A stretch of DNA of 30,541 nt from a virus. The position numbers and the translations under genes are program-made. Below, one piece after another: positions 1,364 to 14,260 of this stretch; within the stretch, counting starts at the first letter, position 1; each line of letters begins with the position of its first letter. Below the pieces are notes generated by a model. That model was not told the DNA's origin. It saw only the letters and a program-made list of their open reading frames with translations, and did no database searches. The stretch is taken from positions 1-30,541 of IMG/VR virus record IMGVR_UViG_3300046507_000231; one strand, written 5' to 3'.

Positions 1364-1425
1364 CCCGTATGGCCATATTGACGTATAAGTGGCCAGATGG
1401 ACGTATGGACGCACATACGTATGGG
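1364..1425. repeat. Putative partition centromere / operator: four CGTAT repeats upstream of parA
   Basis: The pentamer CGTAT occurs at 1366, 1382, 1402 and 1418, at spacings of 16, 20 and 16 bases, so the array is two 36-bp units. Three of the four copies extend to CGTATGG, and GGCCA recurs at 1371 and 1391. Short spaced direct repeats immediately upstream of a parA-RHH operon are typical of the centromere that an RHH partition protein binds, which often doubles as the operon's operator. The repeats are seen; the role is inferred. Confidence 0.5.
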
Positions 1426-1449
1426 CGGTCGGGCGTGTTAAAGCATCGC

Positions 1450-1478
1450 TTGAAGTTCTGACGGCTCTCCATTATGCT
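1450..1478 (+). promoter_or_regulatory. Putative sigma-70 promoter of parA
   Basis: TTGAAG (1450-1455) and TATGCT (1473-1478) are separated by exactly 17 bases and lie about 30 bases upstream of the parA ATG at 1509. The CGTAT repeat array sits just upstream, a layout expected for an operon autoregulated by its centromere-binding protein. It also supports the 1509 start, because the longer open frame beginning at 1389 would put the promoter inside the coding region. Confidence 0.5.
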
Positions 1479-1508
1479 ACGCGGAAAACCACCACCAAGG
1501 AAGCCGAT

Positions 1509-2156
1509 ATGCTCATTGCTGTAGCCACGAGAAAGGGTGGCGTGGGTAAGACAACGCTCGCCACAAATCTAGCCGCATCGCGTGCCACGAAAGGGTATGC
1601 GGTAAAACTCATAGATGCGGACCATGACGAGTATGCGCACATGTGGGGGATGCTGCGCCGCCACAAAGAAATACAGCCGAACGTTCTCCTGTCGAAGATG
1701 ACGGGAAATATCTACTCCGACCTGATGGCAGAGAAAGATGCCGTGGATACGGTTGTAGTTGATGTCGGCGGGAAGCACTCTCCAGAACTAGTGTTCGCTG
1801 TTGGTGCGTGTGACGTGCTTGTTCTGCCTGTCAGGGCGGGGCAATTCGATGTCTGGAGCCTCACCGCTATGTCAACGATGGTTGCCGAGATGCACGCGAG
1901 CGGGAAGGCATTTCGCGTTGTCCCCGTCATGAATGCAATCTCGCCAGACGAGCGCAGCTCATTGACTGCTGGGCTGCAAGACGAGCTTGCAAAACTAAAG
2001 GAGATATTCGGAGAGGGCGTTCAGAAGGTCGTCCAGCGGAACGCGTTTTCGTGGGCGGCGATGGAGGGGAAGGGCGTTACAGAACTATCGCGAAACCGCG
2101 ACACAGAGAAGGCTCAAGATGAGATCGAGGCGCTTTACAACGAGGTGTTCAAATGA
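1509..2156 (+). CDS. parA: ParA-family partition ATPase
   Basis: This is a 215-residue Walker-type partition ATPase. The deviant Walker A motif RKGGVGKTT is at residues 8-16, the LIDAD (A') motif at about 34-38 and the hydrophobic Walker B strand TVVVDVGG at about 81-88. The short form without an N-terminal DNA-binding domain matches small ParAs that work with a separate RHH protein. ParA proteins use ATP to move or position low-copy replicons on the nucleoid before division. I chose the ATG at 1509 because AAGGAAG precedes it, the Walker A spacing from the N-terminus is normal, and a good promoter lies just upstream. The stop overlaps the next ATG (ATGA). Beside a rep gene in a phage genome, it points to a plasmid-like prophage. 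Confidence 0.9.
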   Translation: MLIAVATRKGGVGKTTLATNLAASRATKGYAVKLIDADHDEYAHMWGMLRRHKEIQPNVLLSKMTGNIYSDLMAEKDAVDTVVVDVGGKHSPELVFAVGACDVLVLPVRAGQFDVWSLTAMSTMVAEMHASGKAFRVVPVMNAISPDERSSLTAGLQDELAKLKEIFGEGVQKVVQRNAFSWAAMEGKGVTELSRNRDTEKAQDEIEALYNEVFK

Positions 2157-2848: not shown

Positions 2849-3376
2849 ATGAGCGACACGCCGAAACTACCAAAACACCTCGCCACCGAGGCGGCCGGGC
2901 TGCGGGATATGGGCGGATGGCTTCAGGTCGAGAAGAAAACGCTTCGATCCATCACGCAGCTCTCCGTTAAATATCCAGTCGCGGCCGGGATGCTGCACTT
3001 GCTGGCGAGCAAGATGAACCGGACAAACGCCGTCGTCATGAGCAAGAAGGCGATCGCCGAGGAATTAGGCGTCGTGGAGAGAAGCGTTGAGCGAGCGGTG
3101 AACGTCCTGCGCGATGGTCTTTGGGTCCAAGTGGTCAAGGTCGGCACTCAGAACGCCTACGTCATCAATTCGCGCGTGTACTGGCAGGGCGAACGAGGTA
3201 AGCGCTTCGCAAACTTCTATGCGGCCGTCTCCGTGACCGAGACGGAGCAGGAGAAGGGCGCGGTAGATGATCAGACGCCGCTGCATCAAATTCCGGTCGC
3301 CGGGCCAGATGAGCGCATCTTGGTTGGAAACGAGGAAACGGACCCGCCCGATCAGCAGGAAATGTTTCTCTCATAG
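2849..3376 (+). CDS. rep: Winged-helix plasmid-type replication initiator
   Basis: The 175-residue product has a helical N-terminus (about 40-57, VAAGMLHLLASKMN), a helix-turn-helix at about 64-90 (MSKKAIAEELGV-ERSVERAVNVL) and a hairpin wing at about 91-107 ending in NAYVINSRVYW. This arrangement, including a Tyr-x-Ile/Leu-Asn strand followed by a Lys/Arg-rich KRFANF segment, matches small plasmid initiators of the RepL/RepA winged-helix type. These bind the origin and recruit host replication proteins. The C-terminal 45 residues are acidic and probably disordered. GGAGG four bases before the ATG fixes the start. The parA-RHH pair upstream and the DnaA-box dyad downstream support autonomous replication. 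A transcriptional regulator is the alternative. Confidence 0.7.
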   Translation: MSDTPKLPKHLATEAAGLRDMGGWLQVEKKTLRSITQLSVKYPVAAGMLHLLASKMNRTNAVVMSKKAIAEELGVVERSVERAVNVLRDGLWVQVVKVGTQNAYVINSRVYWQGERGKRFANFYAAVSVTETEQEKGAVDDQTPLHQIPVAGPDERILVGNEETDPPDQQEMFLS

Positions 3377-3687: not shown

Positions 3688-3944
3688 TGCGCAGACTAGG
3701 GGCGGTTGCTCTCGGTGACGTCGCGGCGCGCGCAAAGACGCTCGATGTGGCCTGCACACGCTGCGATCGCCGCGGCCACTATCAGCTTGAGCGGCTCGTC
3801 GCGCGGCTCGGTCCAGATTTCCCAATGACCGATCTAGCTGGCAAACTAGCCGACTGCCCACGGCGCGCATCGCCGGGTTGGAGCGAGCGATGCGACGTCT
3901 ATTTTCCGGGCCTTGCCAAGATCATGATCGGCGACGAAGCATGA
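3687..3944 (+). CDS. Small zinc-ribbon-like protein, 85 aa
   Basis: Translation starts at the ATG overlapping the previous stop. Four cysteines are spaced for a metal site: C23-x2-C26 (CTRC) and, after a helical segment, C57 (DCPRR) and C69 (ERCDV). The pattern 'C-x2-C, basic Gly-x-Tyr helix, DCPRR, RCxVxFPGL' recurs in small uncharacterised phage proteins as far as I remember. It may bind nucleic acid or act as an adaptor. The role is unknown; the metal site is inferred from cysteine spacing alone. Confidence 0.6.
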   Translation: MRRLGAVALGDVAARAKTLDVACTRCDRRGHYQLERLVARLGPDFPMTDLAGKLADCPRRASPGWSERCDVYFPGLAKIMIGDEA

Positions 3945-3949
3945 TGTCT

Positions 3950-4588
3950 CTAGGTGCGGCCCCATCCGAGCGCACCGGGTCGGCTGTAATGCGGGTTCTT
4001 CATTTTGAGCCAGTCGCGTGTGCGGCCGGCAGTGTAGGGCGCATCAAGCCGCTTCGCCATCACACCCTCGAGATCGAGCGTCGCCGCGTGCTGGAACGCG
4101 AGGTCTCCATGTTCTTCGACGCCACTCGTGTAGACGATGACCTTCGTGTCCGCGAAGCTCTCACGCAGCATCGCCTTGCGTTCGATCAGCCGCATACGTC
4201 GCACGTCCTCTCGGCCGGATGCGAGCATGTCGAAAACATAGAGCCTAGCCGGGCGATCACGAGCAGCGGCACGAACGCGCATCGGCACTCGAATGCGTGC
4301 GCGCTGCTGGAGCAGCTCGAAGGACGGCCGCCCGTTCGCTTCGTCCACCGTGAGTTCGGCATCCCACACGAAACTACCCGGCACGGCCTCGAGCGCGGCG
4401 GCAATATCAGGGAACGATCCATTCAACGAGTTACCATTACGCGAGACGAGCGCCACCTGATCGCCGTCCTTGCGCACGAGGACGCGATAGCCGTCGTATT
4501 TGATTTCGAAGATCCAGCCTTCGCGTGTGAATGGCGCACGCGCGAGCGTCGCCAGCATCAGATGCGTATGGTCAATCGGCGGGATCAT
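3950..4588 (-). CDS. Minimal ATP-dependent DNA ligase (adenylation domain only)
   Basis: The 212-residue product carries the nucleotidyltransferase motifs of ATP-dependent ligases: motif I E-I-K30-Y-D-G-Y-R with the AMP-accepting lysine, a motif III region FVWDAEL, a motif IIIa-like YVFDML, motif IV LEGVMAKR and motif V WLKMKN. It resembles the ligase domain of LigD-type enzymes but ends right after motif V, so the OB-fold domain that normally closes over nicked DNA is absent. The start at 4588 is chosen because sequence upstream of it is not ligase-like; its ribosome site is weak and it overlaps the preceding stop by 17 bases. It could seal nicks during phage replication or repair, possibly with a partner. 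Truncation during transfer is the alternative. Confidence 0.75.
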   Translation of the reverse strand: MIPPIDHTHLMLATLARAPFTREGWIFEIKYDGYRVLVRKDGDQVALVSRNGNSLNGSFPDIAAALEAVPGSFVWDAELTVDEANGRPSFELLQQRARIRVPMRVRAAARDRPARLYVFDMLASGREDVRRMRLIERKAMLRESFADTKVIVYTSGVEEHGDLAFQHAATLDLEGVMAKRLDAPYTAGRTRDWLKMKNPHYSRPGALGWGRT

Positions 4589-4772
4589 TGACCGATTCCG
4601 GCAGCCTCGCACTGACGAAGGCGAGCTTCGCCCAGGCGTTGCCGGGATCGCAACCTGAATAGGCGCAGAAGTGCTCGAAGTCATCGAGCACGGTATGACC
4701 GGCAACGTTGGTCGTTAGCGTGCGGCCGTCGACTATTGTCGCGAGTAGTTCTGTCGGGTTTCCGTAGCACAT
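4572..4772 (-). CDS. Hypothetical small protein, 66 aa
   Basis: The ATG at 4772 has an excellent GGAGG five bases upstream, which decides this start over longer readings. The 66-residue acidic product has two cysteines and no recognised motif. Its end overlaps the start of the ligase-domain gene, so the two form a small leftward operon. Upstream lies a 113-bp divergent intergenic region shared with the rightward gene at 4886. Confidence 0.55.
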   Translation of the reverse strand: MCYGNPTELLATIVDGRTLTTNVAGHTVLDDFEHFCAYSGCDPGNAWAKLAFVSARLPESVNDPAD

Positions 4773-4885
4773 GGCAACCTCCGAAGCGTTCGAATACGAT
4801 CGGAGCAAGATGAGTTCCACCGGCAACAAAAAGTTTGATCATCAACGTTATGTCAACAAGTACAAATACAAGAGGCCAAACACGC
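4773..4885. promoter_or_regulatory. Divergent intergenic region with dyads
   Basis: This 113-bp AT-richer gap separates leftward and rightward genes and must contain their promoters or an operator. I see an 11-bp odd-centred dyad (TTGAT-C-ATCAA) near 4834-4844, AACGTT just after it, and TTGACA on the minus strand at 4851-4856. That TTGACA has no convincing -10 at the usual spacing. I cannot assign a specific promoter. Confidence 0.3.
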
Positions 4886-5104
4886 ATGAGCGCCATTTTC
4901 AGAAGCGGAGACGATGAATCGAGATCCGATTCAATGTCGGTGCTGCCCTACTCAGACGGGATGCTTGAGTTCATGATCGACTCGCCCTGGTACGGATCGT
5001 CCGAGACAGGGTTTGGAGCCGATCTTGAGTACACGATCACCCGCGAGGAAGCGATACGCCTGCGAGACGCGCTGACCAAGTGGATTGAGGCCAGCACTGC
5101 TTAA
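4886..5104 (+). CDS. Hypothetical small protein, 72 aa
   Basis: The frame is open from 4835, with ATGs at 4835, 4850 and 4886. I favour 4886 because AGAGG lies about ten bases upstream and the earlier ones have no ribosome site. The acidic product has a strand-rich middle (MLEFMIDSPW) and a C-terminal helix of the form 'TREEAIRLRDALTKWI' that recurs in small phage proteins of unknown role. It ends at 5104, directly against the convergent stop of the DUF1353 gene at 5105, with no visible terminator between. Confidence 0.55.
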   Translation: MSAIFRSGDDESRSDSMSVLPYSDGMLEFMIDSPWYGSSETGFGADLEYTITREEAIRLRDALTKWIEASTA

Positions 5105-5482
5105 TCACGCCGCGGCACCGTTCCAGTGCGATCCGCCGCCCCCGATGCGAACGCCAAGGTACATCGCCCACGCGCGCCACTTCGGAACGCCGGTCAGGAT
5201 CGACGCTTCCTTGAGCACCTTGTCGGCGACGTCGCGCGTAACCCAGTGATAGGTGTAGATCGCGTCATGAACAACTGACGCCATCGTACTCGTGTCGCCG
5301 CACAGCCAATAGACGAGCGGCGCTCGAGGTACTGAGGCGTAGTCAGTGACGAACCCTGCCGGAACGACGAACGTCTGCCCTGCCACGTCGGATTGGTAGA
5401 TCAGCGGCGCGGTAAGGCGCCACTTCCCGTCATCCATGCTGCTCGCGTTCTCGACCTGCAAATCCGTCAGAAACGCGCTCAT
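5105..5482 (-). CDS. DUF1353 family phage protein
   Basis: This 125-residue protein matches the DUF1353 pattern: a strand-rich N-terminus (WRLTAPLIYQSD...FVVPAGFVTDYASVPR) followed by a helical part with VVHDAIY, an HD-like dyad, and R-x2-AD near the C-terminus. DUF1353 proteins are frequent near phage tail and lysis genes and have no established biochemical function that I can cite. The start is fixed by GGAGG four bases before the ATG, which overlaps the stop of the lipoprotein gene upstream. It is the last gene of the leftward unit. Confidence 0.8.
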   Translation of the reverse strand: MSAFLTDLQVENASSMDDGKWRLTAPLIYQSDVAGQTFVVPAGFVTDYASVPRAPLVYWLCGDTSTMASVVHDAIYTYHWVTRDVADKVLKEASILTGVPKWRAWAMYLGVRIGGGGSHWNGAAA

Positions 5483-5922: not shown

Positions 5923-6234
5923 TTAAGCGGAGACGCCGAGAATGGTGCGAGTGCCGACTTGGACGACGATTGTGCGGCTGTCGGTGCGAAGGTTGGTTGT
6001 GACGGTAACGGTGACGTTGTACGTCTTGCCGCTCGTGCCGCCGCCTAGCCAGAACGTGACAATGCCGCCGTTAGTGCTAGTCGTCTTCCCTGCCGGGTTG
6101 ACGTCGATGCCGACATCAGCGGTGACATTGGCCGAACTGATGGTTTCGCCGGCCGCAAGCCATGCGGTCCAGTCCATCACGTAGTCGAGGATCGCTGCCG
6201 GCGCTTTGGGCGGAAGCGGAACAAGAAAAGCCAT
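5923..6234 (-). CDS. Fibre-tail adaptor protein (Gp77-like)
   Basis: The 103-residue all-beta product has the layout of phage fibre-tail adaptor proteins: 'DYVMDWTAWLAAGETISSANVT', then an Ig-like strand series with VTFWLGGGTSGKTYNVTVTVTT and RTIVVQV. These small proteins join side fibres or receptor-binding parts to the tail or neck. AGGGAA lies upstream of the ATG. It sits directly after the 512-residue repeat protein in transcription order, which suggests that protein is part of the same appendage. Family assignment is from remembered pattern. Confidence 0.7.
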   Translation of the reverse strand: MAFLVPLPPKAPAAILDYVMDWTAWLAAGETISSANVTADVGIDVNPAGKTTSTNGGIVTFWLGGGTSGKTYNVTVTVTTNLRTDSRTIVVQVGTRTILGVSA

Positions 6235-6242
6235 GTGGTTCC

Positions 6243-7781
6243 CTATGTTGTGACAGCGATGCGCCGCGATTCAGCGGCAACGAGGAAGCGCCGCGACTCT
6301 GATGCGACATAGACTCGGCGAGATTCACCCTGAACATCGACGCGCCGCTGCTCTGCATCGACAGACACACATCGCGATTCGGGATTGATCGGGAAGCGGA
6401 TAGAGTTCGATGCAGTTGCGATGACGACTACTGCCGAAAACGCGCCAGCGACACCGTCTAGCGACGCGGACAGCGTTGCCGATACGCTCGGACCGGTCTG
6501 AACCTGAGCCGAAAACGAACCGGATAGCCCGGTCAGCAAGCCAGCAAACGACGAGCTCGTGCGCTCTGATGCTAGGACCGCACCTGACACGCCAACCAGC
6601 GCACCAGCCATGGACCCCGGCAGGCTGATGGACGCCGAGAACGATCCGGCAACACCGGCCATCGCGCCGAATAGCTCGGCGCCGGCGCCATCGATCGCAT
6701 GAGCCGCGAAACTCCCAGACGCGCCAGAAAGAACGCCAGATAGCGAGCCGCCGATCGATTCGGAAGCGGCAGCCGATCCACCCACGCCAGCAAGCGCACC
6801 GCTCATTGCGCCGGGCATGGATTCGGCCCCTTGCAATGCGCCGCTGACGCCGGCCAGTGCGCCGGATATGGTCGATGACACGGCTTCAGATGCCGACATC
6901 GAGCCAGTAACGCCGACAAACGCGCCTGAAATGGACGCGCCGACCGTCTGCGCCGCAGATGCCGAGCCTGTCACGCCCGAAAGAGACGCAGAAATAGCCG
7001 CAGGCAACGTTTCAGCGCCAGAGATCGCCCCACCAATGCCGACAAGCGCGCCCGCAAACGACGCCTGCATGCTCTGCGAGCCCGACAGCGAACCAGTCAC
7101 GCCAGCCAACGCCCCGGCAGCAGCACCGGATATGGTTTCAGCCGCAGAAGCCACGCCAGAGACGCCAGACAACGCGCCTGAGATCGTGCCCGTATTGCTT
7201 GACGCTGACGCCAGATACTTGACCGCGTGCAGCATCACGTTGAACGACGAGCCAGAGTTCGTCGTTATCGTCGCCTTGATCGTCAGCGTCTGAGATGCCG
7301 AATTGGCCGCCCACGTGATCGTCGTCGAATAGAACTTCTGATTGCCGGCTCCGGTCGTGCCCGGCGCGACTGTGTACGCGGTCGCACTGCCGTCAGATAG
7401 CGTCGCGGTGAGCGTACAGGCGCTTGAATATGCCGCCCAATAGATAGTTGCCGTTCGGCTCGTCGTGTCGGCAGGCAGAACGATCTGATAGCCCTGCCCG
7501 GTCGCTGTCGTATTGTCGACGTAGATGCCGCCTGCGAGCGCCGTTGCCGATGCCGTTGGCGTGCCGTCCGTCCACGTCATCTTCGGACCGTCTGTGTAGC
7601 CCGTCCATGTAACGCCTGAGCCAATCAGCGTCGGCAATCCGATGGTCGAGCCGCCGCCATTCTTGCGGTTGACGGCCGTCGCAGACTGCGGAAATTGAAT
7701 CCAGTCCGTTTGCGCCGGTGAAGAGAGGTTGAATGTCTCAGTGCCGGCTAAGACTGTGTTGGAGCCGGTGAGAGTGCCCAC
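6243..7781 (-). CDS. Repeat-rich structural protein with 21- and 9-residue repeats
   Basis: The 512-residue product starts at GTG 7781, with AAGGGTG upstream. Three regions are visible. Residues 1-195 form a Thr/Ser-rich beta domain resembling phage appendage or carbohydrate-binding folds. Residues about 198-450 are roughly twelve copies of a 21-residue unit, consensus S-G-A-L-A-G-V-x-G-S-x-S-A-A-E-x. Residues 468-512 are five 9-residue units, E-S-R-R-x-x-V-x-x. There are no cysteines in the repeats. Between a structural protein and a fibre adaptor, a fibre or virion-decoration role is likely. The repeats probably build an elongated solenoid or shaft, but the fold is inferred and I know no named family for the whole protein. 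Confidence 0.7.
   Translation of the reverse strand: MGTLTGSNTVLAGTETFNLSSPAQTDWIQFPQSATAVNRKNGGGSTIGLPTLIGSGVTWTGYTDGPKMTWTDGTPTASATALAGGIYVDNTTATGQGYQIVLPADTTSRTATIYWAAYSSACTLTATLSDGSATAYTVAPGTTGAGNQKFYSTTITWAANSASQTLTIKATITTNSGSSFNVMLHAVKYLASASSNTGTISGALSGVSGVASAAETISGAAAGALAGVTGSLSGSQSMQASFAGALVGIGGAISGAETLPAAISASLSGVTGSASAAQTVGASISGAFVGVTGSMSASEAVSSTISGALAGVSGALQGAESMPGAMSGALAGVGGSAAASESIGGSLSGVLSGASGSFAAHAIDGAGAELFGAMAGVAGSFSASISLPGSMAGALVGVSGAVLASERTSSSFAGLLTGLSGSFSAQVQTGPSVSATLSASLDGVAGAFSAVVVIATASNSIRFPINPESRCVSVDAEQRRVDVQGESRRVYVASESRRFLVAAESRRIAVTT
6246..6380 (-). repeat. Coding array of five 27-bp repeats
   Basis: These bases encode five tandem 9-residue units at the C-terminus of the 512-residue protein: ESRCVSVDA, EQRRVDVQG, ESRRVYVAS, ESRRFLVAA and ESRRIAVTT. 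Alternating charged turn (ESRR) and hydrophobic strand (VxV) suggest stacked beta strands. Confidence 0.75.
6432..7190 (-). repeat. Coding array of about twelve 63-bp repeats
   Basis: This is the DNA encoding the 21-residue units of the 512-residue protein. The protein period is regular except for one copy lengthened by two residues (around residues 362-366) and looser ends. Nucleotide identity between copies is only moderate, so the array is diverged and under protein-level constraint rather than freshly duplicated. Confidence 0.65.
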
Positions 7782-7790
7782 GCTTCACCC

Positions 7791-8183
7791 TTATGCGTTA
7801 CCTTCCGTGAGACTGCCTGAGCTGATGGTGACGGTCGCGCTCGAGACGATCGAGGTCGTTGCCATCTGAACCTCACCAGCGCCGCCCGTCGTGCTGACGT
7901 CCATGTCGAGGATGAACGTTCCGCCCGACGTCGTGAGCCGCGCCCATGTCGCCGTGCCGGTGTTCGACGCCGTTGCGTTGCCGATCGCGCCGAACGTCAG
8001 CACGCCACTCGCCACTGTGCCGAGCGTTGCAGCGCAGGTATGCGCAGAAAGCGCAGTCGTCGCAGTGCCGCCCGTTGCCGGCCGCGTGCCGCTGTACAGC
8101 GTGAGAACCGCGCTCGCGCCGGCCGCAGTCACGATTGCGGAGAGACGGGAATTGCGCACGGTCGAGGAAAGGCCGATCGTCAT
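7791..8183 (-). CDS. Phage structural protein, 130 aa, Ser/Thr/Ala-rich beta protein
   Basis: The ATG at 8183 has GGAGC five bases upstream, following an intrinsic terminator; the longer open frame upstream is out of character and is discarded. The product has the recurrent phage pattern 'LSAIVTAAGASAVLTLYSGTRPATGG' followed by beta-rich Ser/Thr/Gly sequence. Proteins of this kind occur near fibre-adaptor genes in many phages. A virion or appendage role is inferred from context; biochemical function is unknown. Confidence 0.65.
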   Translation of the reverse strand: MTIGLSSTVRNSRLSAIVTAAGASAVLTLYSGTRPATGGTATTALSAHTCAATLGTVASGVLTFGAIGNATASNTGTATWARLTTSGGTFILDMDVSTTGGAGEVQMATTSIVSSATVTISSGSLTEGNA

Positions 8184-9975: not shown

Positions 9976-10899
9976 ATGAATACGATTAGCGTGTTAAGCG
10001 CCGTGGCCGGCGCTATTTTTGCCGTTTCGCTCAGCGGATGCGGTGGCGGAGATGCTGGCGATGCAACGAAAAGTGATGCCGCAATAGCAAAGCCGGTTGC
10101 GCCGGTAGCAGTGATTCCGGTTGAGCCAGCATCGGAGACAGCGACAGCCGCGCCGATCGATGCACCCGCGCCAGTTGCGGCATCGGAACCGGCTGGAACG
10201 TCAGAACCGGCAGCGTCCGAACCGGTGACGGCATTAGCACCAGTAACGACTGCGCCACTATTGCCAGCATCAACGCCAGTCATCAGTATCGACGTCTACG
10301 GTGACGACGCATCAATGAGCTACCGCGCGTCACCGAACTACGGGCCACCGACCTTCGTCAAGACGTCGGCCGAATATCTGCAAGAAGCCCTTCAGAAGAA
10401 GTTCAACGATACGGGAATCACAGTGGCGAACCATGCAACAGGCGGAACGTCAGCCAGCCTTATGAACCTGCTAGATGGCATGGACGGCGGCGGATCTCCG
10501 TTCGCGAAGCGGCTTGCGGCGACGAATTCGTCGATCGTCATCATTAGCTACGCGCTGAATGAGATCTACGGAGGCGAGACAATCTCGGATTTCTCGGGAT
10601 ACCTCGCGCAAGCGATTCAGGTTGTGCGCGACGCCGGAAGAACGCCAGTGCTCGAAGAACCGGGGCCGACGTGCGACGGCGAGCACCCTAGGATGGCACA
10701 ATACGTTGATGCCATCGACGCAATTGGTAAGACGTACAGCGTCCCCGTCATCGCTCAATATAAGCAGATTATCGCAATCTCGGACTGGAAGTCGCACATG
10801 GATGCAACGTGCGAATTGCCAGATTATGAGATCAATGCCATCAAGGCAAAGAATGAACTTGAGATCGTCGCGGCGCTATTGACGGGCGCAGCTCGGTAA
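9976..10899 (+). CDS. SGNH/GDSL-hydrolase-like lipoprotein, probably degenerate active site
   Basis: The 307-residue product begins with a lipoprotein signal (lipobox LSGC, Cys22), then about 80 residues of Ala/Pro/Glu/Ser-rich linker, then a domain from about residue 105 with the SGNH layout. Block I is ISIDVYGDDASM, block II NHATGGTSAS with the oxyanion glycine, and block III YALNEI with the asparagine. Where GDS is expected the serine is aspartate, and the C-terminal Asp-x-x-His block is not evident. SGNH enzymes deacylate esters, often on glycans. This copy may be a non-catalytic surface lipoprotein. GAGGAAG precedes the ATG. It lies head-to-tail with the methyltransferase on the strand opposite the late genes. 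Confidence 0.7.
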   Translation: MNTISVLSAVAGAIFAVSLSGCGGGDAGDATKSDAAIAKPVAPVAVIPVEPASETATAAPIDAPAPVAASEPAGTSEPAASEPVTALAPVTTAPLLPASTPVISIDVYGDDASMSYRASPNYGPPTFVKTSAEYLQEALQKKFNDTGITVANHATGGTSASLMNLLDGMDGGGSPFAKRLAATNSSIVIISYALNEIYGGETISDFSGYLAQAIQVVRDAGRTPVLEEPGPTCDGEHPRMAQYVDAIDAIGKTYSVPVIAQYKQIIAISDWKSHMDATCELPDYEINAIKAKNELEIVAALLTGAAR

Positions 10900-10961
10900 C
10901 AATCCGAATGCCTTCCGCCAACTCAGGTCGTAGCCTTCCCGCTCTCATCTGGCTGGCATTG

Positions 10962-10967
10962 TATGAT
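10962..10967 (+). promoter_or_regulatory. Possible -10 element upstream of the methyltransferase gene
   Basis: TATGAT at 10962-10967 lies in the 132-bp gap between the two moron genes. No good -35 is visible at the right distance, so this is weak. The long AT-richer leader suggests the methyltransferase has its own signals rather than strict co-transcription. Confidence 0.25.
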
Positions 10968-11031
10968 GTAGCGCAAATTCTGCTGAACAGCATCGAACGC
11001 AAAAGCCACAAAACTAGAAGTTGGAGAAAAT

Positions 11032-12387
11032 ATGCAATTTCACCTTGACCAGATCTCTGCCGCCTTTATCGCCGGCTGGTGCAAAAAAGATGAACAACCG
11101 GCTCGCTTGTCGTTGAAGGTGAATGGTAGTCTCGTAGCAGAGACCACTTCTGACCGCTATCGCAAGGATCTGCAGGACGCTGGACTTGGATCCGGGAAAC
11201 TTGCGTACGTATTCCTTCTGATGCGGCCAGGGCTCGCTAACGGAGATGCGATCGAGATAATAGATAAGGAAACCGGATCAATCCTTCACTCCCGAGTTTT
11301 CTCATCGACAAATTCAGATTCCATTGAAAAAGCATATGACTTGATCGACGAGATACCTAAATTCGAATCGCCATATTGGCGACCGGTTCTCATTGACGCG
11401 TCCGATGACAGAGTAAGTCTGCAAGGTGAGTTGTTTGTTCCGGAAGCCGTAACAGAAGAAGTTCGTTTCTACAGCAACGGGTCGCCCGTGAAAGTTCAAT
11501 CCAAGCCCGCTCGCTCGGAAAGTTCTGACCGGTATTGGTTTATGGAAGGGTCCGTCCAACAAGCTAGTTACATCACAGAGATCTCAGAAGAAAGACAGAT
11601 AGTTCATTCTGCAACTCACTCGCGCCCGTTCACAAATATGGATCTCGCTTTCGGCGTCATCCCCAGCAGACGCGACGTCGAGATGTTCAAGTTCGCAGGA
11701 GCAGATCGAGCAAGACGAGTAGCCGGCGGCGACGACACTTTCATGCGTTTCGCGTCTGGAGGCTTGACTACCGCTACTCAACTCCTGCGCGTCATTGAGG
11801 CAAGCACCAACCTCCCGGATTCGGCTTCGGTGCTTGACTGGGGCTGTGGCGCGGCGCGGGTCTTGCAGTTCTTGGCTGCTGAACGACCGAACTGGAGATT
11901 TCACGGCGCGGACATCGACGGGGTCAACATTTCATGGTGCCTAGAGAACATTCCTGATGAGGTGGCCAAGTTCAAAAAGATCCCTCTCATGCCCAAGATG
12001 GATTATCAAGATTCCGAATTCGATCTCGTCTACGGGCTTTCCGTAATAACGCACCTTGAAGAGCGGACCCGAAATGCATGGCTAGCGGAGTTGGGGCGCG
12101 TCACAAAACGTGGCGGCCTCTGCGTCCTAAGCTTCATGTCTCCATTCCACGTTCTGCAAAACGGTATCAACGAATGGTCTCTGCCGATCGTCGAGGAGAT
12201 CTCCCGCCGAGGGATTGCCGACCACCTCCCCGATCATGCGCTTGGTCAGGAACTGAGCTCGTACTACAAGGCTGCCTACAATACGCTCCAGAACCTTACA
12301 TCAGCGGTGTCCGAGTCATTCGACCTCGTATCGTTTCACCCACGTTCGCTCTTGTTCCAAGACGCCGTCGTGCTGCGCCGTCGTTAA
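11032..12387 (+). CDS. Class I SAM-dependent methyltransferase with glycan-associated N-terminal domain
   Basis: The 451-residue product has two parts. Residues 1-90 contain IAGWCKKDEQPARLSLKVNGS...DRYRKDLQDAGLGSG, a small beta domain I remember from bacterial glycosyltransferase and capsule-type proteins. The C-terminal half is a Rossmann methyltransferase: motif I VLDWGCGAA (267-275), an acidic strand end GADID (292-296) and motif IV FDLVYGLSVITHLEE (330-344). The substrate is unknown; surface polysaccharide is likely from the N-terminal domain and the neighbouring lipoprotein. GGAG lies upstream of the ATG. Base composition is visibly more AT-rich than the phage genes around it, indicating later acquisition. 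Lysogenic conversion is the inferred role. Confidence 0.75.
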   Translation: MQFHLDQISAAFIAGWCKKDEQPARLSLKVNGSLVAETTSDRYRKDLQDAGLGSGKLAYVFLLMRPGLANGDAIEIIDKETGSILHSRVFSSTNSDSIEKAYDLIDEIPKFESPYWRPVLIDASDDRVSLQGELFVPEAVTEEVRFYSNGSPVKVQSKPARSESSDRYWFMEGSVQQASYITEISEERQIVHSATHSRPFTNMDLAFGVIPSRRDVEMFKFAGADRARRVAGGDDTFMRFASGGLTTATQLLRVIEASTNLPDSASVLDWGCGAARVLQFLAAERPNWRFHGADIDGVNISWCLENIPDEVAKFKKIPLMPKMDYQDSEFDLVYGLSVITHLEERTRNAWLAELGRVTKRGGLCVLSFMSPFHVLQNGINEWSLPIVEEISRRGIADHLPDHALGQELSSYYKAAYNTLQNLTSAVSESFDLVSFHPRSLLFQDAVVLRRR

Positions 12388-12955: not shown

Positions 12956-14260
12956 TTAACTGAATTCGAACACGATAACGATGCCGGGACCTCCGGCTCC
13001 GCCGCCAACTTGCGATTGACTTGCAAACGTCAATCCACCGCTTCCACCGGACCCGTATCCGAACCCTGCGATGCCGCCGCCAGAGGCGTTTATCGGCGTA
13101 CCCCCGCGACCGAACTGGCTGTTTGCTCCCGCGCCGCTATACCCGACCGTGAGCGACGCCACGAAGGCGATAATTGCGCGATTTCCGGGGATGCTCAAAA
13201 ACCCGCCCGTCGCGCCTGCGTCGCCGAAACCATTGTTCGCCGTCACCGGCGCCGAAGTTGGGCCGGCACTGTTTCCGCCAACTCCGCCAGCAGCCGTTAG
13301 AAGCGACCCGAAGCTCGACGCGCCTCCATTCCCTCCCGCCGTACCCCCGGCGGCCCCTGCTGCCCCTGCCGCACCGACAGTAATTGTCTGAGACACTGCT
13401 GGGCCATAATATTCTCCGTACGCACCCGAATTTCCACCTATTCCCACGCCGACTTGGCTGGCATTCGTAGTCGGAGCGCCCCCCCCGCCCCCTCCCGCGC
13501 CCTGAGCCTTGACCCAAACCTTCGAGGCGCCTGTCGTCGGTGTGTATGTCCCGCTTGACGTGAAGGTTTGTACATTGAGCAGCCGGCCGGCGGTCGGCAC
13601 AGCCTGAATCTGGCTCAGCAGGTTGTTGGTCAGGAACGGTGCGCCGGTGTACTGGCTGATGTTGCCCGACGTAATCGACGTGGCTCCAAACGGAACGGTG
13701 ATGACCCACAGACCGTTGAAGCCAGCGTCGGGCGTCGGCGTGACCTGCGAGCCGGTCGTTGCGGCCGTTCCGGCCTTCAACGACAATTGAACCGTGTTGT
13801 CGCGATACGTCGTGTTCGATGTGCCGGTGTTGTTTGGCCCGCTGTAGGCGGTAGCCGGGTTACTTGCGTTGTAGTATGGGAGAACCGTACTGCCGCCGTC
13901 CACCTCTTGAAACGCGCCTTGCACCAGGTAATTGATCGAAAACCCGGCAGTCGTAGGGGCGGGACACGAGAAGTTCACCGCGTCAAGCAGAATCCCCTGC
14001 TTCACAATCGTGTGCGCGTCAGCGGTAAGCGAAGAGTACGCGCCGGTATCGGTCGCTTGAAGCGAGTAAGCGCGGCCCGGATTTACGTTCACCGTCATGC
14101 CGGCCGGCGACGTCGGAACGCAGCCGAGTCCGGAGAACAGCGTAGATGTGCCGATCATGTCCTGCAGGACGTGGCCGATGGCGACCATGACGTTCTTGTT
14201 CAGATTGAGCAAGTCCGTCTCAAGCGGCACAGCTCCGGCGTAGTTGATAACTCGACGCAT
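12956..14260 (-). CDS. Tail fibre protein with glycine-rich C-terminal domain
   Basis: The start is ATG 14260 (MRRVINYAGAVPLETDLL), with GGAAG about eight bases upstream; the longer frame to 14302 crosses a terminator. The 434-residue product has an N-terminal tail-attachment part of a type common in Burkholderia phages, a beta-rich middle, and from about residue 245 a glycine-rich tip domain (KVWVKAQGAGGGGGG, ITVGAAGAAGAAGG, ending GGAGGPGIVIVFEFS). Glycine-rich tips of this kind can carry receptor specificity by variable loops. The following gene is its chaperone. It probably binds the host surface. Confidence 0.85.
   Translation of the reverse strand: MRRVINYAGAVPLETDLLNLNKNVMVAIGHVLQDMIGTSTLFSGLGCVPTSPAGMTVNVNPGRAYSLQATDTGAYSSLTADAHTIVKQGILLDAVNFSCPAPTTAGFSINYLVQGAFQEVDGGSTVLPYYNASNPATAYSGPNNTGTSNTTYRDNTVQLSLKAGTAATTGSQVTPTPDAGFNGLWVITVPFGATSITSGNISQYTGAPFLTNNLLSQIQAVPTAGRLLNVQTFTSSGTYTPTTGASKVWVKAQGAGGGGGGAPTTNASQVGVGIGGNSGAYGEYYGPAVSQTITVGAAGAAGAAGGTAGGNGGASSFGSLLTAAGGVGGNSAGPTSAPVTANNGFGDAGATGGFLSIPGNRAIIAFVASLTVGYSGAGANSQFGRGGTPINASGGGIAGFGYGSGGSGGLTFASQSQVGGGAGGPGIVIVFEFS

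What the first reader, a model, noticed from the sequence alone, without database searches (positions are those of the whole stretch)
6243..7781. 512-residue appendage protein with two unrelated repeat systems
About twelve 21-residue Gly/Ala/Ser units followed by five 9-residue ESRR-x-x-V units lie behind a 195-residue beta domain. The gene is beside a fibre-adaptor gene, far from the main fibre at 12956-14260, suggesting a second appendage or a decorated shaft. I know no named family with this architecture.
Basis: partly seen in the sequence, partly recalled or inferred. Interest (0 to 1): 0.6.

Follow-up and report, generated by a model that had tools for sequence, protein, structure and literature searches.

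The report
Rope protein of a beaded fibre
This phage gene most likely encodes a long flexible 'rope' that strings together copies of the small protein made by the gene in front of it, plugs into a ring on the virus at one end and carries a sugar-binding-like head at the other; the plan resembles a solved fibre of podophage GP4, but nobody seems to have shown that rope and bead evolve as matched pairs.

Summary
ORF 7781-6243 has a ~190-aa beta domain, twelve units on a 21-residue register (z 12.2; shuffle maximum below 4.8) and five 9-residue E-x-R units (z 7.6). The 'second trimeric fibre' reading is only partly right. The gene is the middle of a three-gene cassette: bead (8183-7791; profile match to the phage 7-7-1 garland dimer 9RKV, E 5.6e-13, TM 0.71), target, Gp77-type collar adaptor (6234-5923; GP4 8JOU chain D, E 5.6e-10). 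The same order occurs in Lessieviruses (GP4-type beads) and other phages. Across 46 dereplicated loci, rope sequence tracks the bead (Mantel r 0.87; 0.88 controlling for the N-terminal domain), although that domain, which tracks neither, is encoded between them. The C-terminal repeats track the adaptor. Repeat sequence and N-terminal domain change completely while the 21-residue register and ~11-12 units persist. Best model: a single-chain rope threading bead dimers, C-terminus docked on the collar, N-terminal carbohydrate-binding-like payload distal. It works like GP4 fibre I; membership is not claimed, because the bead's homology to GP4 gp80 was tested and not found. No structure of the complex or virion proteomics exists for this phage.

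The parts
7791..8183 (-). Bead protein gene (130 aa, ATG at 8183), directly upstream of the target
   Evidence: PHROG 3758 'virion structural protein' 3.6e-24; profile A2 matches PDB 9RKV_A (7-7-1 garland) 5.6e-13 and 44NX_B 4e-12; AF2 model pLDDT 88.7, Foldseek 9RKV_A E 4.2e-6, TM 0.71
6243..7781 (-). Rope protein, 512 aa, GTG start, ribosome-binding-like AAGGGTGA just upstream
7212..7781 (-). Residues 1-190: payload domain, beta-sandwich of carbohydrate-binding-module type (fold inference only)
   Evidence: pLDDT ~90; best PDB neighbours include CBM22, CBM4, CBM16, CBM6/35 and gingipain adhesin domains, probability up to 1.0 but E >= 0.01 and target TM <= 0.52; swapped for unrelated domains in relatives
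6408..7211 (-). Residues ~191-458: rope, twelve units of 21 residues (consensus SGALAGVSGALSASESISGS-)
   Evidence: periodicity, unit count, co-variation with bead
6246..6407 (-). Residues ~459-512: five (plus one degenerate) 9-residue E-x-R-x-x-x-V units, inferred collar-docking tail
   Evidence: periodicity; co-variation with adaptor, partial r 0.76 given rope
5923..6234 (-). Gp77-type fibre-tail (collar) adaptor, 103 aa
   Evidence: PF23148 5.8e-22; PDB 8JOU_D (podophage GP4) 5.6e-10

Best explanation
The 512-aa protein is the rope of a beaded neck/tail appendage. The 130-aa protein encoded just upstream is the bead, a dimeric garland/whisker-fold protein. The twelve 21-residue Gly/Ala/Ser units are bead-binding registers, probably one unit per bead subunit (so about six dimers), and their number sets the length of the chain. 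The C-terminal 9-residue E-x-R repeats dock on the Gp77-type adaptor ring encoded just downstream. The N-terminal carbohydrate-binding-like domain is an exchangeable distal payload that may make first contact with host-surface sugars. Shown here: the anatomy, the repeat registers, the bead and adaptor homologies, the conserved gene order, and pairwise co-variation rope-bead and C-terminus-adaptor. Inferred: threading, dimers per rope, polarity, the neck position and sugar binding.
For: (1) The bead-rope-adaptor order recurs: in most IMG/VR relatives of the payload or of the bead, and in named phages with sequence-distinct beads: Lessieviruses BcepIL02, DC1, JC1; Itty13; Microcystis phage Mae-JY04; DSL-LC06. 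(2) BcepIL02's bead matches GP4 8JOU_a, 10 chains in the entry, E 2e-48, and the gene after it is a ~11-unit rope with a C-terminal ENR repeat. (3) Rope~bead Mantel r 0.87, p at the permutation floor of 0.0005; partial r 0.88 given payload; payload~bead only 0.08, although the payload lies between them; no pair has bead similarity above 0.8 with rope similarity below 0.2. (4) C-terminus~adaptor 0.84 (0.76 given rope); rope~adaptor given C-terminus -0.12. (5) Repeat consensus changes completely but the 21-residue register stays; modal unit number is 11-12 across unrelated payloads. (6) Bead fold is nearest 7-7-1 garland and Sf14/Bas63 neck-connector chains; in Sf14 one gp30 chain threads two whiskers (PMC11821841); A511 BW3TFN dimers are strung on an extended chain (as described in PMC10811340). 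(7) JC1 virions contain bead gp53 and adaptor gp55 by MS (PMC9144972).
Against: No complex was predicted or solved (only monomers could be run). The window's bead and GP4-type beads show no detectable profile similarity (hhalign probability 0.4%), and GP4 is not among the 50 fold matches shown. JC1's rope gp54 was not detected in its virion MS. The bead's closest solved homologue sits at the baseplate, not the neck, and no 21-residue rope lies beside it in 7-7-1 or Milano. Some bead homologues have no rope after them (L084, L092, L099). Loci are related by descent, so the Mantel p-values are optimistic.
Confidence: 0.75

Rival explanations
1. A second homotrimeric tail fibre: the 21-residue repeats form a beta-structured trimeric shaft and the 9-residue repeats an attachment or tip.
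For: Beta-rich periodic Gly/Ala/Ser repeats are common in trimeric fibres (own knowledge); the monomer model places a regular short strand in each unit. A-1(L) neck fibres are trimeric bead chains (PMC10966104).
Against: It does not predict that repeat sequence tracks the neighbouring 130-aa protein (r 0.87) while an intervening domain does not. The repeats have low confidence as a lone chain. The solved relatives of the bead are dimers.
Confidence: 0.12
2. The repeat region is only a flexible spacer; rope and bead co-vary because both belong to the vertically inherited backbone while payloads are swapped between them.
For: Payload swapping is frequent, and exchange of the middle segment alone would leave bead and rope linked. 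In L014 the whole bead-payload-rope stretch is diverged or replaced as one block.
Against: The rope lies next to the C-terminus and adaptor, yet is decoupled from them once C-terminus similarity is held constant (rope~adaptor given C-terminus -0.12; C-terminus~bead given rope -0.33). A spacer would not hold a 21-residue register and 11-12 units through complete sequence replacement.
Confidence: 0.1
3. The same bead-on-rope machine, but attached at the baseplate as a garland (as in 7-7-1 and Milano) rather than at the neck. This is a variant of the best explanation, differing in position only, so its confidence overlaps with it.
For: Nearest solved bead relative is the 7-7-1 baseplate garland (PMC12796354).
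Against: The adaptor is of the GP4 fibre-tail type, and the other structural neighbours of the bead are neck-connector chains (Sf14, Bas63). 7-7-1 and Milano lack an adjacent rope.
Confidence: 0.25

Closest known systems
Ralstonia podophage GP4 fibre I (PDB 8JOU: gp80 beads, rope protein, gp77 fibre-tail adaptor) and its Lessievirus relatives (BcepIL02 gp55-57)
   Same: Adaptor homologous (E 5.6e-10); same gene order bead-rope-adaptor; rope of ~11 units of ~20-22 residues plus C-terminal E/ENR 9-residue repeats in the relatives
   Different: Bead has no detectable sequence homology to GP4-type beads; here the payload is fused to the rope N-terminus; 21-residue register; contractile-tailed phage. 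That GP4 has five gp80 dimers on a rope is from my own knowledge of the abstract; the 10 bead chains are from the PDB search.
Phage 7-7-1 gp014 / Milano gp125 and gp127 garland proteins (PDB 9RKV)
   Same: Bead is homologous (5.6e-13) with the same fold (TM 0.71); dimers in a bead-like chain
   Different: Garland lies at the baseplate; the proteins coded beside it (Milano gp126, 7-7-1 gp013 and gp011) have no 21-residue periodicity
Sf14 / Bas63 neck whiskers and connector (PDB 9C39, 9MT4)
   Same: Bead fold neighbours (Foldseek probability 0.93-0.99, TM 0.5-0.75, E 0.09-0.8); in Sf14 one gp30 chain threads two whiskers
   Different: Short whiskers of gp30 and gp31 dimers, no long repeat rope reported
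Alishewanella phage LSH1 gp34-gp36 module (PMC13243795)
   Same: Payload domain followed by an unexplained low-confidence region, a GP4-fibril-like dimer and an Ig-fold protein, always together
   Different: Payload is lyase-like; its sequence could not be checked here for a 21-residue register
Anabaena myophage A-1(L) neck fibre gp80-gp82 on pentadecameric gp5 (PMC10966104)
   Same: Contractile phage with flexible bead-chain neck fibres, many copies of one bead, terminal carbohydrate-binding module
   Different: Beads are trimers without a described rope; no sequence link tested

Membership tests
GP4 fibre I (bead-rope-adaptor) | Gp77-type fibre-tail adaptor encoded in the cassette | tested here: met
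   PF23148 5.8e-22; 8JOU_D 5.6e-10
GP4 fibre I (bead-rope-adaptor) | Bead homologous to GP4 gp80 | tested here: not met
   Profile-profile comparison A2 vs A5 gives probability 0.4%; GP4 not among the fold matches shown for the bead model
GP4 fibre I (bead-rope-adaptor) | Rope of ~20-residue repeats with C-terminal E/ENR repeats between bead and adaptor genes | tested here: met
   Target compared with BcepIL02 gp56, DC1, JC1, Itty13
GP4 fibre I (bead-rope-adaptor) | Sequence similarity to GP4's own rope protein | not testable with these tools
   GP4 genome not found in the collection; no PDB chain matched the rope profile
GP4 fibre I (bead-rope-adaptor) | 15-fold ring carrying five fibres | not testable with these tools
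   No multimer prediction or virion structure available
7-7-1/Milano garland proteins (for the bead) | Sequence-profile and fold similarity to 9RKV_A | tested here: met
   E 5.6e-13; TM 0.71, E 4.2e-6
7-7-1/Milano garland proteins (for the bead) | Homodimer | not testable with these tools
   Monomer prediction only
Carbohydrate-binding modules (for residues 1-190) | Match to a CBM family profile | tested here: not met
   No significant Pfam hit in the 30-member alignment; fold resemblance only
Trimeric tail fibres | Confident trimeric beta shaft in the repeat region | tested here: inconclusive
   Monomer model has low confidence in the repeats; trimer prediction not available

The most novel reading that the evidence does not exclude
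A general lock-and-key scheme: many phages of several tail types carry beaded appendages in which a rope with a fixed ~21-residue register is read by a cognate bead, one unit per subunit. Unit number acts as a ruler for fibre length and rope sequence specifies which bead it accepts, while payload and collar-docking ends are independently exchangeable. It would also explain the unassigned low-confidence tails next to such payloads, as in LSH1 gp34.
Probability: 0.5. Interest if true: 0.72.

Novelty: new variant of a known kind. Interest (0 to 1): 0.55.

Why it matters
It turns an unannotated low-complexity protein into a defined machine part with a testable code: rope register against bead subunit. 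It gives a likely meaning to a class of phage proteins that structure prediction leaves blank (the LSH1 authors state that they could not explain theirs) and that annotators sometimes miss altogether (unannotated rope ORFs in Atu_ph08 and VSN-002). The free exchange of payloads on a matched bead-rope pair shows a natural modular appendage platform in tailed phages.

Tried and rejected
tblastn of the whole protein and of its N-terminus against named phages found nothing, partly because low-complexity filtering is on. Pfam and PHROGs gave nothing significant. PDB searches with the target and with the Lessievirus rope profile gave only compositional hits (7TFM at 0.0038 judged spurious). Homology of the window bead with GP4-type beads was tested and not found. 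Milano gp126, 7-7-1 gp013 and gp011 were tested as possible ropes for the garland and showed no 21-residue period. A first automatic delimitation of the repeats failed where the phase shifts by one or two residues and was replaced by chained unit counting. L014 first looked like a double swap around a constant payload; nucleotide alignment shows that bead, payload (86%) and rope all differ as one block between 96-98% identical flanks, so it is described as block replacement. Slicko01 was opened to check an LSH1-like relative but the relevant gene was not located in the stretch read.

Full report
What is there. The window is a 30,541-base virus record of a contractile-tailed phage: tail sheath, baseplate J and wedge genes on the minus strand. 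Relatives come from metagenomic virus contigs and from Caballeronia and Pararobbsia genomes. The reported ORF is on the minus strand, 7781-6243, 512 aa, GTG start. Its three zones are real. Residues 1-190 are non-repetitive. Residues ~190-455 repeat every 21 residues (z 12.2) and the last ~55 every 9 residues (z 7.6), against shuffle maxima of 4.0 and 4.75. Chained unit counting gives 12 units. The C-terminal units start at residues 468, 477, 486, 495 and 504.

Neighbours. Directly upstream (8183-7791) is a 130-aa virion protein family member (PHROG 3758). A 20-member profile of it matches the phage 7-7-1 garland protein, PDB 9RKV_A, at 5.6e-13, and 44NX_B at 4e-12. Its AlphaFold model (pLDDT 88.7) has 9RKV_A as best fold match (E 4.2e-6, TM 0.71), followed by neck-connector chains of phages Bas63 and Sf14 (probability 0.93-0.99, but E 0.09-0.8). 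In 7-7-1 the garland is made of homodimers (PMC12796354). In Sf14 one whisker chain threads two whiskers (PMC11821841). Related-fold proteins of A511 form dimers strung on an extended chain (described in PMC10811340). Directly downstream (6234-5923) is a Gp77-type fibre-tail adaptor (PF23148) homologous to a chain of the GP4 fibre I structure 8JOU.

The same cassette elsewhere. BcepIL02, DC1, JC1, Itty13, Microcystis phage Mae-JY04 and phage DSL-LC06 carry a ~140-aa protein, then a Gly/Ala-rich periodic protein ending in E/ENR repeats, then the adaptor. BcepIL02's small protein is a close homologue of 8JOU_a, which has ten chains in that entry. Lessievirus ropes have a mixed 20/22-residue period and about 11 units, close to one unit per bead chain. 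JC1 virions contain the bead and the adaptor by mass spectrometry; the rope was not detected (PMC9144972). BcepIL02's three proteins are annotated as virion-associated. Two ropes are missed genes: Atu_ph08 (L053 3474-3986) and Sphingopyxis phage VSN-002 (L141 ~3882-5374).

Co-variation. Bead, rope, payload and C-terminus were compared over 46 dereplicated loci, with scores corrected for composition by shuffling. Rope and bead similarity correlate at 0.87, and at 0.88 with payload held constant; payload and bead at 0.08. Pairs with bead similarity below 0.3 never exceed rope similarity 0.06; pairs above 0.8 never fall below 0.21. C-terminus and adaptor correlate at 0.84, and at 0.76 given rope; rope and adaptor at -0.12 given C-terminus (27 loci). 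The order on the DNA is bead, payload, rope, C-terminus, adaptor, so simple linkage predicts the wrong pattern: the rope is largely decoupled from its neighbours on both sides and coupled to the more distant bead. These loci share ancestry, so the p-values (0.0005, the permutation floor) are optimistic; the pattern rather than the p-value carries the argument.

Invariant register. Entirely different repeat consensuses (SGALAGVSGALSASES.., SGAVAVSGSAASTQAPNVSSA, LAAAAATAAGAAHTKSAAHGA, GTLATTLDDATLAASGTV..) keep 21-residue spacing, with 11-12 units the mode, behind at least three kinds of payload: the window's beta domain, glycine-rich domains, and in L082 a LamG-like domain judged by eye. A spacer would not need this; a rope read by a repeated partner would.

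Payload. Residues 1-190 are confidently predicted beta. Fold neighbours are carbohydrate-binding modules and adhesin domains, with weak statistics (best E 0.01 for these, target TM <= 0.52) and no family-profile match. Sugar binding is therefore inference.

Interpretation. The best reading is a beaded appendage with this protein as its rope: C-terminus on the collar adaptor, twelve registers for bead subunits, payload distal. It works like GP4 fibre I. I do not file it as a member, because homology of its bead to GP4 gp80 was tested and not found; its bead belongs with the garland family instead. Neck placement is likelier than baseplate placement but not shown. That GP4 fibre I consists of five gp80 dimers on a rope protein is from my knowledge of that paper's abstract; the paper itself was not in the library. 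LSH1's authors describe a comparable three-gene module with an unexplained low-confidence region (PMC13243795), which this model would explain if the same register is present there.

Noticed in passing
window 1389-2156 (+) and 2849-3376 (+): ParA-type ATPase (AAA_31 9.4e-12) and a RepL-like replication protein (2e-5) beside tail genes: possible phage-plasmid.
   Followed up: no
window 3950-4705 (-): ATP-dependent DNA ligase domain gene (3.3e-30) just beyond the structural cassette.
   Followed up: no
window 9976-12387 (+): GDSL hydrolase and methyltransferase-domain genes on the opposite strand between endolysin and main tail fibre, like host-modifying morons.
   Followed up: no
L053:3474-3986: Unannotated ORF in Agrobacterium phage Atu_ph08 between bead and adaptor is a short rope with 20-residue period.
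   Followed up: partly
L141 about 3882-5374: Unannotated ORF in P22-like Sphingopyxis phage VSN-002: glycine-rich payload followed by a repeat rope, right after a bead gene.
   Followed up: partly
L139:1908-3125: Mycobacterium phage Charlie gp22 has 42/21-residue periodicity with a C-terminal glycine-rich domain, near a bead homologue (gp24): possibly the same machine in actinophages with reversed domain order.
   Followed up: partly
L030, L031 (ORF 777 aa): Rope carries extra C-terminal domains instead of the E-x-R repeats.
   Followed up: no
L084, L092, L111: Bead homologues followed by a ~330-aa protein without repeats, so some beads are used without a rope.
   Followed up: no
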